Below are positions 44,617 through 64,000 of a stretch of 64,000 nt of DNA, piece by piece. The position numbers and the translations under genes were made by a program. The stretch covers positions 2,046,001 to 2,110,000 of the forward strand of contig NC_135244.1 in the NCBI RefSeq assembly GCF_947623445.1, given 5' to 3'. The number at the start of each line of letters is the position of its first letter. Position 1 is the first letter of the stretch. The notes beneath the pieces are model-generated. The model was not told the DNA's origin. It was given only the letters and a program-made list of their open reading frames with translations, and searched no databases. This DNA is from Clavelina lepadiformis. Lineage: Eukaryota > Chordata > Ascidiacea > Aplousobranchia > Clavelinidae.

Positions 44617-46176
44617 ATGTCTGAAAGTGGTCAAAGTCAACCGTCCTACGGGAATAGCTATAGTCGCAAAAAGAAAAGGTTTCGTGATCGTGAGTTTGTT
44701 CGTGAGTCTGATTATAGAGGACGAGAAGGAAGGGCGGAGTCCGGCCGACCCTCATCTGCAAAAAATCCTGGTGAAGATCCAGAAAAATCTCAAGTTAGTC
44801 TGTCACAGCCAAGTGCAAAGACCCCAGTGATTTTAGCAAAGCCCGCGTCGGGTAAGTTACCAGGTACTTCAAATGAAAGCGGAAATTCTTGGAAGGAAGT
44901 TGCCGAAAGTCCAACTGTTGCGATTGCTCCAAAGTTGTCGATGACGTTCAATCGATCCCCGCAGTTATCTGGAGACAAGAAAGGACCCATTCTTCGTTCA
45001 TCCTCAGATTCAAAGTTTCGAGCTGGTGCTTCTCCAAACATTGTTAAACAAAGTCTTGCCCAAGCCACAAGCTCTAGTGGAGCAAACCAGACACAGGGTG
45101 GCATGTCCACAAAAACAAAAGATAGCAGTTCTTCCCGGTGCGTGAAAATGCTGGACTCAACTTTGCATTGGGTAGAAGGGGGTATTGAATTTCTGCAGGA
45201 CCAAAATGATTTCCTGGTGGTTGGAGTAATAGGCATGCAAGGTGTTGGAAAGTCCACTGTGCTCTCGCTTGCTGCAGGGAATAGACTGACAGAGCCACAG
45301 AAATCATTCCTGTTTCGTCCCCAGACGGCAGAAGCAAAAGAAAAAGCGAGTCACATGACTTCGGGAATAGACATGGCTGTGACCAATGATCGACTTATTT
45401 TACTTGACACCCAGCCAATTCTTAGTTCTTCAGTGCTCGAACAATCCATTCATTACGACCGAAAAGGATCATCAGATTATAGCAGTGCATCGAGTATTGA
45501 GATCCAATCATTGCAGATAACCGCATTCCTGCTTACCGTCTGTCACGTCGTGATAGTTGTCCAGGATTGGTTTACCGACAGCAACATCTACAACTTTCTC
45601 CAGAAAGCTGAAATGTTGAAACCAGTGTCAGCTCCTCCATCCCACGACAGCAGCTCTTCCTCTGAGCACAGTTCGAGTGATCTCAAGCCAGTTATTTTGT
45701 TTGTTCACAATAAAATGGACTCGGACATGTTTGGCGTTCGTCCCATCACCATGATGAATGAAGTGATGGACAATCTCGTTCGTTATTCCAACAGCCACTG
45801 CAAAGGATACTTTTCTCAAATTGAAACCAATTTATACCCCGGCTTATCCAGTATTCTGCCTGTTGCCAACGAGGTCAATGCTTTTGTTTTGCCGAATATA
45901 AATGACGCAGAAAATGAGGAGGAGAAATGTGATGTCACAAAGGTCGCGTTTGATGCGGCCGACAAGCAGTTTCTTTCAATTCCGCAATATGTTGGTCGGC
46001 CCAGTACTGCATTACTTGAAAACACTTTTCGTAAATTAATACTTTCTGTTCCTAGACACCCTCTCACCCATCTTCCACTGTCCGAAAAGAACTGGTTTCA
46101 CTACGCTGCACGGACATGGGAAGCGTTACGCAAATCGCAGCTTGTAACCGAGTACAACAGGCTTCTGTCTTCTTAG
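44617..46176 (+). CDS. SMG9: SMG9, nonsense-mediated decay factor, intronless
   Basis: Single exon, 519 residues; human SMG9 has 520. The N-terminal 180 residues are Ser/Lys/Arg-rich and disordered. The G-domain-like core follows: FLVVGVIGMQGVGKSTVLSL (P-loop GMQGVGKS near residue 206-213), LFRPQTAEAKEKASHMTSGI, RLILLDTQPILSSSVLEQ, CHVVIVVQDWFTD, VILFVHNKMDSDMF. These landmarks match SMG9. SMG9 pairs with SMG8 and restrains the SMG1 kinase, which phosphorylates UPF1 on aberrant mRNAs. The acidic insertion (NDAENEEEKCD) near residue 430 is a loop. The ATG at 44617 is the first in frame. TMEM167B starts 362 bp downstream on the same strand, so a three-gene transcription unit is possible. Confidence 0.93.
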   Translation: MSESGQSQPSYGNSYSRKKKRFRDREFVRESDYRGREGRAESGRPSSAKNPGEDPEKSQVSLSQPSAKTPVILAKPASGKLPGTSNESGNSWKEVAESPTVAIAPKLSMTFNRSPQLSGDKKGPILRSSSDSKFRAGASPNIVKQSLAQATSSSGANQTQGGMSTKTKDSSSSRCVKMLDSTLHWVEGGIEFLQDQNDFLVVGVIGMQGVGKSTVLSLAAGNRLTEPQKSFLFRPQTAEAKEKASHMTSGIDMAVTNDRLILLDTQPILSSSVLEQSIHYDRKGSSDYSSASSIEIQSLQITAFLLTVCHVVIVVQDWFTDSNIYNFLQKAEMLKPVSAPPSHDSSSSSEHSSSDLKPVILFVHNKMDSDMFGVRPITMMNEVMDNLVRYSNSHCKGYFSQIETNLYPGLSSILPVANEVNAFVLPNINDAENEEEKCDVTKVAFDAADKQFLSIPQYVGRPSTALLENTFRKLILSVPRHPLTHLPLSEKNWFHYAARTWEALRKSQLVTEYNRLLSS

Positions 46177-46538
46177 TCGTATGTTTGTTGAGTGGTTAAA
46201 CTGTTAAGTCAATTCATAGCGACAACAACAATTTGAGTAGATTTGCTTTACGGGGCATCATTAAATTTTAAATGCTGTTACTTTAGTTCATCTTTGGCTG
46301 CGTATATTATTATGTTACTTGGCATGTATATGTTTTGTCATTGACAGCATTTTGTATGATACGACCTGTTATACCTTTTGATTTGACTATGGAATAGTAA
46401 TTTTTGGACTAGTATATTTGCCTTTTAGCACAGACTATTTGCTGGAATTTTTTTTTAAATTTTACTTTCAAAATGTTTTTTGCTTCATTTCAAACAGAAT
46501 TACAGATTAGGTTAGATTAGAATTACTATGAAGACAGC
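46177..46538. other. SMG9-TMEM167B spacer
   Basis: 362 bp, AT-rich, no AATAAA found close to the SMG9 stop. Too short to exclude a shared transcript. Confidence 0.4.
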
Positions 46539-47649
46539 ATGGCAAATGGTAAGTTTCAGCTCATGCCTTTAGTGTGATTTTATTTCATAGATGCTGGATA
46601 TATATACTAATGAAATTGGCACATAATTTCAATGGTTAACCCACCATTGAATAATGGTTAGAAATGTTAATCAAGCTTCATTGTACCAAGTTTTTGCTAA
46701 TCAGACAACCAAAACAAAACTAGAAAGGTTTATACCATAATTGGTTGTCTTAATAGCAACTAATTGAATTTGAAGTCAATTTTTTATCTACTTAAACTTG
46801 CTCTACTACTACTTTATCTACTTTCATTGTGTTGCAGTTTACTCATTTGATGGCTTGTTGATATTCAGTCTTCTTTTGATTTGCACGTGTGCTTATTTGA
46901 AGCGAATTCCTCGTCTGAAGCAGTGGATGTTCTCAGAAAAGAAAGGATTTTTTGGCATTTTCTATAAAGGTTGTCTTGAATTAATGCAAATTGTACATAA
47001 TGTTGAATAGTTTAATTCTGTTTTAGTTTTTATATAACTCTTAATATTGGTCAGTAATCAAAAAATTATTATAAACATGGAATAATTTTATAATATTGCT
47101 TTGTACTTGTACCCGAGTTTATCCAGTTTGTTTGTCCACGTGATGCCAGTCGCTCTGGTCATGCTACAGCGCATTTCTAAGACATAAATATTTTTCTGCC
47201 TGAGTGGTTTTGCTACCACTCATAGCAATTTCAAGGTAGTATCATTCAGAGCCTGACTGCTAAGCTGAGATGTTGATACTATGCTAGTATACCTAGTTAC
47301 TGGCCAGCTTGAGTATATTAACTTATAAATACGTTTGTGGTATACATCCTTAGCCTTTTTCTGATAACTATTGTTAGTATTTGATTCTGTTTAAATGATA
47401 CTGAAAGGCTATGAATGTTTTCATGTGAAAGAAATGCAGTTAATGAACACGTATAGTCCATCAATTTTTAAAACAACGCTTCATTGATTAAAAGTGAAAG
47501 TAGGTAGATGATATATTTGCTTATCAGCTTTTAAATAATTTACATTTTTTTGTTTTTAACTTACAGCTGCAATCATTGGGACACGTCTGCACATACCCGT
47601 TGCATCAATTTGTGTTTTAACGGCTCTCTACTTGATTTTGTTGAAGTGA
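46539..47649 (+). CDS. TMEM167B: TMEM167B / kish-B small membrane protein
   Basis: Three exons: 46539-46548 (ATGGCAAATG), 46838-46969 and 47567-47649 (TGA), 74 residues, the same length as human TMEM167B. It begins MANVYSFDGLLIFSLLLICT; human is MTNVYSLDGILVFGLLFVCT. CAYLKRIPRLKQWMFSEKKG and GFFGIFYKAAIIGTRLH follow, then a second membrane span ending LYLILLK. The family (kish) is thought to act in early secretory traffic at the Golgi. An upstream out-of-frame ATG at 46528 precedes the chosen start. The stop codon lies 2 nt before the POFUT1 start, so the last exon of this gene overlaps what would be the 5' leader of POFUT1. Confidence 0.93.
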
Positions 47650-47651
47650 AA

Positions 47652-48794
47652 ATGTGGCGTTACCTTGCGCCAATCCTCCTGTTGGCAAACTTTTCAAATG
47701 CAAACAAGAGCATTGATAGTAATGGCTATGTTATGTACTGTCCTTGTATGGGGAGATTTGGCAATCAGGCAGATCACTTTTTAGGCTCGTTTTCTTTTTC
47801 AAAGAAACTGAATCGTACTCTCATTGTGCCGCCTTGGATTACCTTTAACTCTGGTGGGAGAAATGGATTTGTTCCTTACACAAAGTGGTTTAAAGCGGAA
47901 CCTCTTTCGTCCTATCATCGTGTTATTATGATGGAAGATTTCATGAAAGATCTTTCCCCTTCTGTTTGGCCAGAAGGCGTTAAAAGCAGGAAGATCTATT
48001 GCCATAGGTTTGCAATGGATAGGAGTGAGGATAAATCCACATGCCCTGCAAAATTCGGGAATCCATTTAAGCCATTCTGGGATAACTTTAATATTGAGTT
48101 TGAGATGTCTATGGCTTTTACTAGCGGGTTGTCATACCAGTCAACCAAGGAGCAATGGGACGAAGCATTTCCCAGCAATGAAAACCCAGTTATTGCTTTG
48201 ATGGGGGCCCCTGCGAGTTATCCCATCGCAGAAGCCGACAGATACTTGCAGAAATATGTCGAATGGTCAGATGAAATAAAAGCTTTCGCTTCCGATTTCA
48301 TCGAAAAAGAACTGAAACGACCTTACCTTGGTATCCACTTACGAAATGGCATGGATTGGAAACGGGCTTGTCGTAATGTGAAAGGTTCTATTAAGTATCC
48401 GTATATGTCTTCCCCGCAATGTGTTGGTTTCTCACAAACAAAACCATTCACCCATGAAATGTGCTATCCACAAAAAGAAGCCGTAATCGAACAGGTGACT
48501 GGCATCATTAAAAAGTCAGGAGCAAAATCTCTATTTATTGCAACAGACGACCAATCTTTCGAGAAAGAATTCAAACAAAGTTTTTTAGATAATTTGCTGG
48601 ATGTAGATATGGTAAAACTAGATCACGACTCCTTAGTGAAAGACATGGCCATTCTTATGGAAGCCGATGAGTTTATGGGAAGTTGTGCCTCTTCTGTTAC
48701 TGCATTTGTAGTCAGAAAGCGAAATATTTTAAACAAACCAAACTCATTTGTAGGAATGCTTAATGATGATAAGCCAAATAAAACTGAGTTATAA
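47652..48794 (+). CDS. POFUT1: GDP-fucose protein O-fucosyltransferase 1
   Basis: 380 residues in a single exon; human POFUT1 has 388. An N-terminal signal peptide (MWRYLAPILLLANFSNA) is followed by the GDP-fucose fold: YVMYCPCMGRFGNQADHFLG, LIVPPWITF, YLGIHLRNGMDWKRAC with the catalytic-site arginine in HLRNG, and a C-terminal donor-binding half (SLFIATDDQSF, MGSCASSVTAFV). The C-terminus is KTEL, which resembles an ER-retrieval signal and fits an ER-resident enzyme. It adds O-fucose to EGF repeats of Notch and similar proteins. The frame is open upstream to 47550, but that part is the TMEM167B last exon read in another frame. I choose the ATG at 47652 because the signal peptide starts there. 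Confidence 0.94.
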   Translation: MWRYLAPILLLANFSNANKSIDSNGYVMYCPCMGRFGNQADHFLGSFSFSKKLNRTLIVPPWITFNSGGRNGFVPYTKWFKAEPLSSYHRVIMMEDFMKDLSPSVWPEGVKSRKIYCHRFAMDRSEDKSTCPAKFGNPFKPFWDNFNIEFEMSMAFTSGLSYQSTKEQWDEAFPSNENPVIALMGAPASYPIAEADRYLQKYVEWSDEIKAFASDFIEKELKRPYLGIHLRNGMDWKRACRNVKGSIKYPYMSSPQCVGFSQTKPFTHEMCYPQKEAVIEQVTGIIKKSGAKSLFIATDDQSFEKEFKQSFLDNLLDVDMVKLDHDSLVKDMAILMEADEFMGSCASSVTAFVVRKRNILNKPNSFVGMLNDDKPNKTEL

Positions 48795-49135
48795 AAGTAT
48801 TAGTTCCGTAGATTAATGAAATGTATTTTTCTGTTCCGTGAACACGCATAATTTTTTCACGAAGCTATATATCATATATTTTATGTAGCGTTAGCTGTAT
48901 CTCATAATGGTGCTTGTATTAATCTTATTTACACAATGATCAATAAGTTTGTGCAACAGTTTTGTTATGTTTTTCCAACTAAAAATTGTTTCATTAAAAA
49001 GCAAGTATAACATATATAAGTTTTGAAACTTTTATTGTGATGTCATAATAATATATTGTTTTTGTGCAGAGATCAGTCGTATTTTGTTTCAATCATCATC
49101 AGTGCAAAACGTTTTGACGGGGATTTGCTTTTGTT
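48795..49135. other. Convergent 3' spacer POFUT1 / SAC3D1
   Basis: About 340 bp of AT-rich DNA between two convergent stops. No coding signal. Confidence 0.5.
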
Positions 49136-50573
49136 TCATTTCAATACCGTTAAATGACCATCTAATAAAAACTGAGACAAAAATTTACCGGAAATGTCTT
49201 TAAGTGCATTTACAATACAACAATCATCGGTAGAAAATGAAGAACGTTCAATGTAGTCAGCCTTACAAAACTTAATACAGTTGGTTTGCACAACTTTTAA
49301 GTTAAATTGTTGACAAAATTTAACAGATTCTTTTTCACTGGAAAGCAGCAGCCATTTTTTTAAATCAGCTGCAGGAAAACTGCACAATTTTGAGTTATGT
49401 GAATAACAAAGCAACTTGACTGTTCGCGTCCGTATCGTCTTCATGTTATGTATCAGTGCGTATAAGGCAGCGTATGCTTCTGCGTGGACCAGCTTTTGAA
49501 AGAGGAGAGATATTCGAATAAAGTTTCCTGTTTGGTAAGCAAAATATATGTCCATTGCGTGTTGCAGGATTTCAGTGTTTCTTGTTGATTTCGGAAGGCA
49601 CAAAAGATTAGATATTGCCTCAGTTGTATCAGCGTTGAGAATAACATACGCTGCCAGAATGTGAAGGAATTCGTTTCGGTCGTTATCATCAAGCTCGCAT
49701 AGATTGTAATAGCAAAGCTTCAAAAAACTTCTCATGCAGTCTTGTGTATGGCTCAAATTAATATGAGCATCAATCTGCAGTTTGGGATCTATGTTAAGTT
49801 TATACATGGCCAATAGATAAAACCTGATGCATTTTGCAAGAATTTTCATGGCTGAAATTGGTTCATTTTCTTGCAGCATTTGAATCACAGCATCTTGTCG
49901 GATACTCCGTAATCTAAACAACAAAATTATCAAAGCTGGTTTATAATAATTGGTATAGCAATATTGAAAACTAAAATATAAGCCTTGTTTAATACCAGAG
50001 TAGAAAGTTTGCTGTTTCTGGGTGAGAACCCCCCTGCGCAACAAGATGAAACAAAAGCCATTATACGTGCAATTAATTTTAACACCTCGCGCACTTATCA
50101 ACCTTTCCAGTCTGGGTTTAATACATGTGCAGTTGAAGTGCTAAAACATATGTTGTAAACAGCAAAAAAGGACCTGTCAAATATGAAATTGTATGTAACT
50201 GCAAATGGGATTTCCTTTGCCAGAAGAACGTTAGAATATAAATAATCAATCGTCTTCAGAAGAACATGGCTTGGTCTGACCAGCTGCGGATCACAAATCA
50301 CTTCCCCGGCAGCTGAACGATGGAACTCTTTGACGCAGTGATTTAAGTCAATCTTCAAACAACAAAATCTACTTTGTATTACTTTTTAAATTATATTAGT
50401 AAACTTGAATACCTGAGTTTTGAATCGTAAAGTAATAAATGTACTCTTGTCACCTCTGAAGTTTTCCCAAATAAAACCTCTGGACTTTCAAGCAGATGTA
50501 AGAGGTGATGTTTCTTACGGAAAATGAATTCCTTTTCTGGGCACATCGACATACACATCCCCACAATAGCCAT
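49136..50573 (-). CDS. SAC3D1: SAC3 domain-containing protein 1 (SHD1 type)
   Basis: Three exons: 50454-50573 (ATG), 50174-50352 and 49136-49913 (stop), 358 residues. It starts with the SAC3/GANP hallmark GMCMSMCPEKEFIFRKK, then IDLNHCVKEFHRSAAGE, LRSIRQDAVIQMLQ and a helical region (CMRSFLKLCYYNLCELD, ILAAYVILNADT). The end folds like the winged-helix part of SAC3 proteins (SFSTDDCCIVNALKD). Both introns are fixed by phase and by continuity of the motif (FIFDR/LRSIRQ). The family includes the TREX-2 scaffold Sac3/GANP; SAC3D1 itself is a short paralogue linked to centrosome and spindle function in mammals. This copy lacks the long GANP N- and C-terminal extensions, which argues for SAC3D1. 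Confidence 0.88.
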
Positions 50574-61362: not shown

Positions 61363-62113
61363 GGACGATTCAACCCACGGATGATTCAACCCCGGACAAT
61401 TCAACCCACGGACGATTCAACCCAGGATGATTCAACCCCGGACGATTCAACCCACGGACGATTCAACCCGCGGACGATTCAACCAGCGGACCATTCAACC
61501 CGCGGACGATTCAACCCACGGACGATTCAACCCGCGGACGATTCAACCCACGGACCTTTCAACCCACGGACGATTCAACCCACGGACGATTCAACCCAGG
61601 ACGATTCAACCCCGGACGATTCAACCCACGGACCTTTCAACCCACGGACGATTCAACCCAGGACGATTCAACCCCGGACGATTCAACCCACGGACCTTTC
61701 AACCCACGGACGATTCAACCCAGGACGATTCAACCCCGGACGATTCAACCCACGGACGATTCAACCCGCGGACGATTCAACCAGCGGACCATTCAACCCG
61801 CGGACGATTCAACCCACGGACGATTCAACCCGCGGACGATTCAACCCACGGACCTTTCAACCCACGGACGATTCAACCCACGGACGATTCAACCCAGGAC
61901 GATTCAACCCCGGACGATTCAACCCACGGACCTTTCAACCCATGGACGATTCAACCCAGGACGATTCAACCCCGGACGATTCAACCCACGGACCTTTCAA
62001 CCCACGGACGATTCAACCCAGGACGATTCAACCCCGGACTATTCAACCCACGGACGATTCAACCCACGGACGATTCAACCCACGGACGATTCAACCCACG
62101 GACGATTCAACCC
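61363..62113 (+). repeat. Left minisatellite arm, 15/16-bp unit, with higher-order structure
   Basis: Units differ at the CCCACGG / CCCGCGG / CCCAGG / CCCCGG junction and at GACGATT versus GACCTTT. A four-unit block of about 62 bp recurs, and a larger segment is duplicated with a shift of 298 bp (compare 61473 with 61771). Several long open frames result, but they are only translations of the repeat. Confidence 0.9.
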
Positions 62114-62575
62114 GTTTATAAAAACGTCTACGCAGTCAATGTGTCAATTTGGTCAATCAATATGGTCAATTTTTTTTAACCTGCTCAGAATGCTATCACA
62201 AAACAAATTTCAGTCTTGTGCGACGTGTAGTACAGAAGTTATTAGGCCAATATAAAGTCAATTGTTTCGTTAGGTCAAGATACGGTCAATTGTGTCTTTT
62301 AGGTCAAAATCTATTAAACTTGTAATTTTGTAATATTATTCTTCCGTTTTTCTCTTTTCTTGTACCGCAAACAATTCCAGTGCCCCAAATTAGAGGCCTA
62401 CATAGAACCAAAGCCACCAAGAGAGGGAAGGCCTTTCAGCGCGTCTGGTGACGTCACGATGTGAAGGCATTGCATTTGAAACTTTATATTAGCTTAGGCC
62501 TATATATTAGCTTTATTTAGCTTACATAATATTGGCTACAAAGTAACTTGGTGATAACCTAAGCCAATAGTACGT

Positions 62576-63034
62576 GAAAGGTCCGCGGGTTGAATCGTCC
62601 TGGGTTGAATCGTCCGTGGGTTGAAAGGTCCGTGGGTTGAATCGTCCTGGGTTGAATCGTCCTGGGTTGAATCGTCCATGGGTTGAAAGGTCCGTGGGTT
62701 GAATCGTCCGGGGTTGAATCGTCCGTGGGTTGAATCGTCCTGGGTTGAATCGTCCGGGGTTGAATCGTCCGTGGGTTGAATCGTCCGCGGGTTGAATAGT
62801 CCGGGGTTGAATCGTCCTGGGTTGAATCGTCCGTGGGTTGAAAGGTCCGTGGGTTGAATCGTCCGCGGGTTGAATCGTCCGCGGGTTGAATCGTCCGCGG
62901 GTTGAATCGTCCGCGGGTTGAATCGTCCGCGGGTTGAATCGTCCGTGGGTTGAATCGTCCGGGGTTGAATCGTCCTGGGTTGAATCGTCCGTGGGTTGAA
63001 TCGGCCGGGGTTGAATCGTCCGTGGGTTGAATCG
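62576..63034 (-). repeat. Right minisatellite arm in inverted orientation
   Basis: Same unit family as the left arm on the opposite strand, about 30 units, including a run of five GCGG-type units at about 62865-62935. It is shorter than the left arm, so the arms have expanded or contracted independently. Confidence 0.9.
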
Positions 63035-63044
63035 ACCTGGAACC

Positions 63045-63053
63045 ACTAGCTTG
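63045..63053. repeat. Right 9-bp target-site duplication of the foldback-like element
   Basis: ACTAGCTTG, identical to 61347-61355. Confidence 0.7.
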
Positions 63054-64000
63054 ATTTCTTCGTCCCCGATGCACTTTTGACCCAAAATAAAAAGATTGGT
63101 TGATTGACTAACGAGCCCAAGTATGACACCGTACGAATACGATGCGTCGTTTTTGAAAACTTCTACTTTTGTAGTCAGATTTTTAGTCTTTCTTAGAAAA
63201 CCATGTAGTTCAACTTCAAAACAATCCCTTTTTACCGCAAAACACAGTTGTCAACGTCCTGCGTATACGTGACTTGTCTCGAATTGGATTACTTTGTCTC
63301 CTGTCTCATATTGTTCGGGAAATCCGAATGTTTCATCTTCAAACTAAAGTCAGACAGAAAAGTAAGTGACTTAAGGTAAGTGTTTATCTGTATAATTGAA
63401 AGATTCGGAAAATAATAATGTCTAGTAGGGATGGGCCGATACGAACCCAAACCCGAATAAATTCGCCGAATATCGCCTTTATAGAAGATTCGGGCAAACA
63501 CGAATACCAACAATGACGAACCCGAATACAAAATTACTTATAAGTTTACTGACTTTCGTAAAAAATGATGATCTAGTTTCCAGACAATGCTAAACTATAG
63601 TCAGCAGTACTTACAATGAAAGCCGTTCTCCTAACGATTTTGCTTTTTCAATCGTTTTTAAACACTATTTTTCGAAAGAAAGCGATTTGTTTATCGATTA
63701 CGTCATTTTACAAGCAAGACTTGACAACTTTTGGATGAAATTTTATTGTTTGGTTCTAATACGAATAGATTCGGGATTCGTTCGTGTCGACCTTCATGAT
63801 ATTCGGGTTCGCACGAACCCGAATGCCCGTTTGTAACCGGATGAGTGCTTTCTCAATACTTTCTTGTACCAGGATCACAGTAGGCCTATTCTACTGAAAA
63901 TGTATAATGCTTTATGAGCAACTGAAAGCTAATATAAAGACATTTGATGCGTTGTATCACATTAAACAAGCCACTTAGTATCTCGGTTTTACTATAATGC
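63054..64000. other. Intergenic end of window
   Basis: No gene. Holds the second copy of the dispersed repeat and a TAGGCCTA palindrome at 63881-63888. Confidence 0.5.
63425..63840 (+). repeat. Dispersed repeat, copy 2, with hAT-like left end
   Basis: Begins TAGGGATGGGCCGATACGAA, which resembles termini of some hAT-type non-autonomous elements, and is full of GAACCCGAAT and its complement ATTCGGGTTC. It matches 57165-57600 in block order. I see no clear right terminus or target duplication. Confidence 0.5.

What the first reader, a model, noticed from the sequence alone, without database searches (positions are those of the whole stretch)
46539..48794. TMEM167B and POFUT1 are separated by only 2 nt: a probable trans-spliced operon
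The TMEM167B reading frame ends with TGA at 47647-47649 and the POFUT1 ATG is at 47652-47654. Both gene models are supported at full family length (74 and 380 residues). There is no room for a poly(A) signal, promoter or leader. The nearest AG upstream of POFUT1 (GAAG at 47643-47646) lies inside the last TMEM167B codons, behind a T-rich stretch. If it is the spliced-leader acceptor, the two mRNAs cannot both be made from one precursor molecule with intact ends, so the outcome would be a choice. This resembles the zero-gap operons reported for Ciona.
Basis: partly seen in the sequence, partly recalled or inferred. Interest (0 to 1): 0.8.

Follow-up and report, generated by a model that had tools for sequence, protein, structure and literature searches.

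The report
Two sea-squirt genes, two bases apart
In a sea-squirt genome the gene TMEM167B ends two bases before the gene POFUT1 begins, so the two are probably copied into one RNA and separated by adding a short leader sequence, an extreme example of a gene arrangement already known from the sea squirt Ciona.

Summary
TMEM167B (three exons, 74 aa) stops at 47647-47649 and POFUT1 (one exon, 380 aa) starts at 47652. Chromosome lengths match Clavelina lepadiformis, chromosome 5. The genome holds 1,603 matches to the Ciona spliced-leader exon plus donor (at most 2 mismatches) against 10 for the control, many in a tandem array, so leader trans-splicing is probably available. POFUT1 gave one match in the genome.

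A TMEM167B mRNA with its full frame and any 3' UTR must contain POFUT1 sequence, and exon 3 holds none of 14 poly(A)-signal hexamers. The normal acceptor of TMEM167B exon 3 (AG 47565-47566) scores well; using it would remove 14 intronic ATGs and leave an 85-nt ATG-free leader.

I favour one shared precursor whose exon 3 acceptor is used in cis (TMEM167B) or in trans (POFUT1). No RNA evidence was available; other readings remain open. Abutting operons are well documented in Ciona. What is unusual is coding sequences that nearly touch, with a possibly shared exon.

The parts
44617..46176 (+). SMG9 gene, single frame of 519 aa; possible first gene of the same transcription unit
   Evidence: Solved SMG9 matched at 3.8e-92 over residues 1-517; no Pfam family at E 0.001. 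Ends 362 nt before the TMEM167B ATG. Membership of the unit is inference.
46539..46548 (+). TMEM167B coding exon 1
   Evidence: Spliced translation; donor ATG|GTAAGT 7.47 bits
46838..46969 (+). TMEM167B exon 2
   Evidence: PF06842; spliced translation
46970..47566 (+). TMEM167B intron 2, 597 nt, 14 ATGs; donor AAG|GTTGTC lowish, acceptor good; proposed cis/trans branch point
   Evidence: not a repeat (one match)
47565..47566 (+). AG acceptor of exon 3; favoured SL acceptor for POFUT1
   Evidence: 8.64 bits, above 23 of 29 leave-one-out acceptors. SL use is inference.
47567..47649 (+). TMEM167B exon 3 with TGA at 47647-47649; with AA it would form an 85-nt ATG-free POFUT1 leader
47645..47646 (+).
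   Evidence: 2.38 bits, above 5 of 29; random recoding
47652..48794 (+). POFUT1, single exon, 380 aa
   Evidence: PF10250 7.9e-65; solved POFUT1 4.8e-108; one match in the genome
48993..48998 (+). ATTAAA, first of the two common poly(A) hexamers after POFUT1; possible shared 3' end
   Evidence: AATAAA next at 49164. Use is inference.

Best explanation
TMEM167B and POFUT1 (possibly with SMG9 upstream) are transcribed together, and intron 2 of TMEM167B is the branch point between two products. If its acceptor (AG 47565-47566) is joined in cis to exon 2, the result is a TMEM167B mRNA that carries POFUT1 as its long 3' part and yields TMEM167B. If the same acceptor receives the spliced leader in trans, the result is SL plus the 85-nt ATG-free stretch plus the POFUT1 frame, which yields POFUT1. 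Each precursor then gives one protein or the other. Shown: gene structures, 2-nt gap, no poly(A) hexamer in exon 3, SL genes in the genome, relative acceptor scores, ATG-free leader. Inferred: co-transcription, SL addition, use of this acceptor, the either/or outcome.
For: SL genes: 1,603 matches against 10 controls, unit with TATA-like box, SL and GTAAGT donor. Acceptor 47566 above 23 of 29, acceptor 47646 above 5 of 29. No ATG from 47567 to 47651, against 14 in intron 2; 0 of 14 poly(A) hexamers in exon 3. POFUT1 found once and without intron. In Ciona, trans-splicing prefers the first functional acceptor and goes with weak first donors (passages of PMC11155486). Operon genes there are often single-exon (passages of PMC2760879).
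Against: No RNA data. The intron 2 donor is only lowish (above 7 of 29; another intron in the window scores alike). An ATG-free exon 3 is expected in 38% of random recodings, so it is no sign of selection. The acceptor model rests on 29 inferred introns and the bootstrap difference reaches down to 0.3 bits. My search for retrocopied SL mRNAs found none among 15 of 46 sites looked at. No second species could be compared. The one Ciona operon neighbourhood checked has a 659-nt coding gap here, so near-zero gaps are not the rule shown.
Confidence: 0.5

Rival explanations
1. SL trans-splicing at AG 47645-47646, in the last codon of TMEM167B: POFUT1 mRNA is SL plus TGAAA plus ATG. The upstream fragment loses its stop codon, so a precursor gives POFUT1 or TMEM167B, not both.
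For: No other AG between 47567 and 47644 (listing). Joint probability of final AAG, equal score and no internal AG under random recoding is 0.0075, though these features were combined after the fact.
Against: Weak acceptor, 2.38 bits, above 5 of 29, A at -3 as in 1 of 29. Singly: no internal AG 11.7%, final AAG 46.9%, an equally good AG near the end 33%.
Confidence: 0.12
2. POFUT1 has its own promoter inside intron 2 or upstream and is a separate, overlapping transcription unit without SL.
For: Intron 2 is 597 nt, long enough for a promoter, and holds a CACGTG and a TATAAATA by eye. Alternative internal promoters are discussed for Ciona (passages of PMC11155486).
Against: An unspliced 5' UTR from intron 2 could carry many of its 14 ATGs. 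A transcript starting in intron 2 would meet the strong acceptor at 47566 without an upstream donor, which is itself a good setting for SL addition.
Confidence: 0.18
3. One spliced dicistronic mRNA makes both proteins, POFUT1 by reinitiation or leaky scanning, without SL.
For: Two-nucleotide stop-start spacing. Linked two-gene transcripts were reported at the Botryllus fuhc locus, with no SL on the second message; the authors call rare read-through the simplest explanation (passages of PMC3691228).
Against: The spliced message has three further ATGs between the two start codons, and reinitiation after a 74-codon frame is usually inefficient (recalled). The genome has SL genes.
Confidence: 0.12
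4. Assembly or gene-model artefact.
For: None found.
Against: Both proteins are intact and match their families; the published assembly reports QV 67.4.
Confidence: 0.03

Closest known systems
Ciona abutting operons resolved by the single 16-nt SL (Satou et al. 2008, PMC2760879; SLOPPR, PMC7986045; passages of both seen)
   Same: Same-strand neighbours with almost no space, single-exon gene present, and the same SL exon in the genome
   Different: There the upstream transcript end abuts the SL acceptor; here the coding sequences nearly touch, so an acceptor must lie in or before the upstream gene's last coding exon. No SL or co-transcription evidence here.
[quoted passage not shown]
   Same: One acceptor used in cis or trans, with a weak donor favouring trans
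   Different: There it gives two forms of one gene; here it would choose between two genes. The donor here is only lowish.
Botryllus fuhc sec/tm gene pair (PMC3691228, passages seen)
   Same: Two adjacent tunicate genes, with linked transcripts reported there
   Different: 227-bp intergenic region and no SL found on the second message; authors favour rare read-through
SL1-type operons of C. elegans without intercistronic region (mentioned in PMC7986045; otherwise recalled)
   Same: No space between genes, one general SL
   Different: Different phylum and SL; not compared by sequence here

Membership tests
Ciona-type SL operon | SL RNA genes in the genome | tested here: met
   1,603 matches against 10 controls; unit sequence
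Ciona-type SL operon | Same-strand genes less than 100 bp apart | tested here: met
   2 nt between coding sequences; transcript ends unknown
Ciona-type SL operon | Plausible 3' splice acceptor upstream of the downstream start codon | tested here: met
   AG 47565-47566 at 8.64 bits, above 23 of 29
Ciona-type SL operon | Poly(A) site of the upstream gene abuts the SL acceptor | tested here: inconclusive
   No poly(A) hexamer in exon 3; ending at either acceptor would remove the TMEM167B stop codon
Ciona-type SL operon | SL on the downstream mRNA | not testable with these tools
   No transcript data held
Ciona-type SL operon | Co-transcription as one precursor | not testable with these tools
   No transcript data held
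Ciona-type SL operon | Same gene pair in an operon in Ciona | not tested
   No Ciona genome or operon list held; the paper search gave no answer

The most novel reading that the evidence does not exclude
A single 3' splice acceptor acts as a switch between two unrelated proteins: joined in cis it completes TMEM167B; joined in trans to the spliced leader it turns the last coding exon of TMEM167B into the 5' UTR of POFUT1, the only POFUT1 gene found in the genome. SL supply or donor strength could then set the ratio of a small Golgi membrane protein to the Notch O-fucosyltransferase (functions recalled).
Probability: 0.4. Interest if true: 0.6.

Novelty: new member of a known kind. Interest (0 to 1): 0.4.

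Why it matters
If the shared-acceptor reading is right, the locus shows how an operon can work with no intercistronic DNA at all, and ties the supply of POFUT1, needed for Notch O-fucosylation (established knowledge, recalled), to a splicing choice. It also shows the Ciona SL exon in Clavelina, an aplousobranch; whether that is already in print I cannot say beyond one search that found 0 papers holding both Clavelina and spliced leader. A poly(A) RNA-seq run for the species is listed in the genome note (ERR10908613), so the question can be settled directly.

Tried and rejected
Retrocopies of SL-bearing mRNAs as genomic proof of trans-splicing: 46 exact SL copies not followed by G, control 0. 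15 of the 46 were fetched; by eye none of the 15 looked like a processed mRNA, and a run of at least 9 A occurred in 1 of 15. Five of them share upstream flank, so they are repeats. Not used as evidence.

Retrogene or duplicate POFUT1: one match in the genome. Intron 2 as a repeat: one match. POFUT1 relatives in bacterial and archaeal contigs: 9 pattern matches, none confirmed. A count of near-zero coding gaps: the coding scan is too blunt for short exons. The first intron finder gave only 7 introns (checked) and was replaced, which gave 29 introns from 117 segment pairs. Ranks scored training introns with their own matrix and looked starker; the leave-one-out ranks replace them and are less favourable to the contrast. 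Selection for an acceptor at 47646: not shown. Rfam on the SL unit and six SL-headed repeats: no match up to E 1. Papers: nine searches. One search (POFUT1, Ciona, operon; at least two of three) found 197 papers and listed 10, of which one holds all three words, a fut8 paper that I did not open. Two primary Ciona papers were not held. All papers cited were seen as passages only, not whole.

Full report
Observation. TMEM167B is encoded by 46539-46548, 46838-46969 and 47567-47649; joining these in a script gives 74 residues and TGA at 47647-47649, matching PF06842 at 1.3e-12. POFUT1 starts at 47652 and ends with TAA at 48792-48794 without an intron. It matches PF10250 at 7.9e-65 and solved POFUT1 at 4.8e-108 over residues 21-369. 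The residues before 21 read as a signal peptide to my eye, and the next in-frame ATG, codon 28, lies inside the matched stretch, so 47652 is very likely the true start. Between the two genes lie the bases AA.

Organism. The genome has 209,060,895 bases in 95 contigs. The lengths of C1 to C9 match the nine chromosomes in Table 2 of the Clavelina lepadiformis genome note to within about 0.01 Mb; the window's contig, 24,617,235 bases, is chromosome 5 (passages of PMC10884593). Ascidia mentula, also in 95 scaffolds, does not fit (197.0 Mb, longest 27.9 Mb; passages of PMC11109543).

Is trans-splicing available? The Ciona SL exon plus GTA (letters recalled) has 872 plus 731 matches with up to 2 mismatches, against 5 plus 5 for the reversed control. 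Of the places listed, which are only the first ones, six lie on C2 to C4 and the rest on C6, mostly 745 bp apart. One unit reads TATA-like box, ATTCTATTTGAATAAG, then GTAAGTCAATCTGAGCTTTGGCA. This shows SL RNA genes; it does not show that POFUT1 receives the leader. My attempt to find retrocopied SL mRNAs failed.

Are operons present? Satou and colleagues report 1,310 candidate Ciona operons with 2,909 genes, abutting in the great majority of cases with 5' data, enriched in single-exon genes, with DTL-URM1-CHERP as one example (passages of PMC2760879). A reanalysis predicted 1,172 operons, of which 1,128 remained at an intercistronic limit of 1 bp (passages of PMC7986045). In the present genome URM1 is followed on the same strand by a start that I read from memory as CHERP, 659 nt after the URM1 stop; DTL was not checked. 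So part of one Ciona operon neighbourhood persists, with a wide coding gap.

3' end of TMEM167B. No AATAAA occurs from 46177 to 48000; ATTAAA occurs at 46260 (after SMG9) and 47487 (in intron 2). None of 14 tested hexamers lies in exon 3. A message with the whole TMEM167B frame and any 3' UTR therefore contains POFUT1 sequence. After POFUT1 the first ATTAAA is at 48993 and the first AATAAA at 49164.

Which acceptor? I trained donor and acceptor matrices on 29 introns inferred between strongly coding segments of 264 kb. Leave-one-out scoring puts the exon 3 acceptor (AG 47565-47566) at 8.64 bits, above 23 of 29, and AG 47645-47646 at 2.38 bits, above 5 of 29; the bootstrap difference runs from 0.3 to 15 bits. 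The intron 2 donor AAG|GTTGTC is above 7 of 29, like AAG|GTTGAA of another intron in the window, so it is lowish but not abnormal. One search gave starker ranks because it scored training introns with their own matrix; those are superseded. Recoding exon 3 synonymously 100,000 times gives no internal AG in 11.7%, final AAG in 46.9%, an equally good AG near the end in 33%, and no ATG in 38%. The joint figure of 0.75% combines features chosen after the fact. There is no convincing sign that the TMEM167B tail is shaped as an acceptor.

Mechanism. With the acceptor at 47566, trans-splicing would yield SL plus 85 nt without ATG plus POFUT1, while intron 2 upstream holds 14 ATGs. Cis-splicing yields TMEM167B with POFUT1 attached. 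In Ciona, trans-splicing prefers the first functional acceptor and is associated with weak first donors (passages of PMC11155486). I therefore prefer a shared acceptor used in cis or in trans. Co-transcription, SL addition and the either/or outcome are inferences; the alternatives are listed as rivals.

Uniqueness. POFUT1 gave one match in the genome. PF06842 gave two, this gene and one on C4, whose surroundings I only glanced at. In 264 kb no other strongly coding pair lay within 50 nt, with the caveat that this scan misses short exons, TMEM167B included. SMG9, a single frame, lies 362 nt upstream and may be the first gene of the unit.

Verdict. A real, extreme example of a known kind of arrangement, with an untested but specific splice-switch hypothesis.

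Noticed in passing
window 61363-62115 (+) and 62546-63178 (-): Two open stretches on opposite strands encode the same tandem peptide repeat (GRFNPRTIQPTDDST-like) with no Pfam match; probably minisatellite copies in inverted orientation rather than genes.
   Followed up: partly
L043, L045, L047, L053, L055, L056: Repeats that begin at an exact SL copy followed by related letters of the kind ACTGA-GA-GCC, with unrelated upstream flanks; Rfam gave no match up to E 1. Perhaps a mobile RNA that was once trans-spliced.
   Followed up: partly
L044, L046, L048, L049, L050: A second repeat group with an exact SL copy, but with shared upstream flank as well, so the SL is internal to the repeat.
   Followed up: no
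G000:C9 9592965-9615636 (-): Ten exact SL copies followed by A, spaced at about multiples of 755 bases: probably an array of SL-like genes with an altered donor.
   Followed up: no
window 49136-50101 (-): SAC3/GANP-family gene (PF03399, 4.5e-29) convergent with POFUT1, 341 nt between the two stop codons; the + strand AATAAA at 49164 lies inside it.
   Followed up: no
window 46528-46530 (+): An ATG 11 bases upstream of the TMEM167B ATG and out of frame with it; SL addition at AG 46532-46533 or 46536-46537 would remove it, but both score poorly as acceptors.
   Followed up: partly
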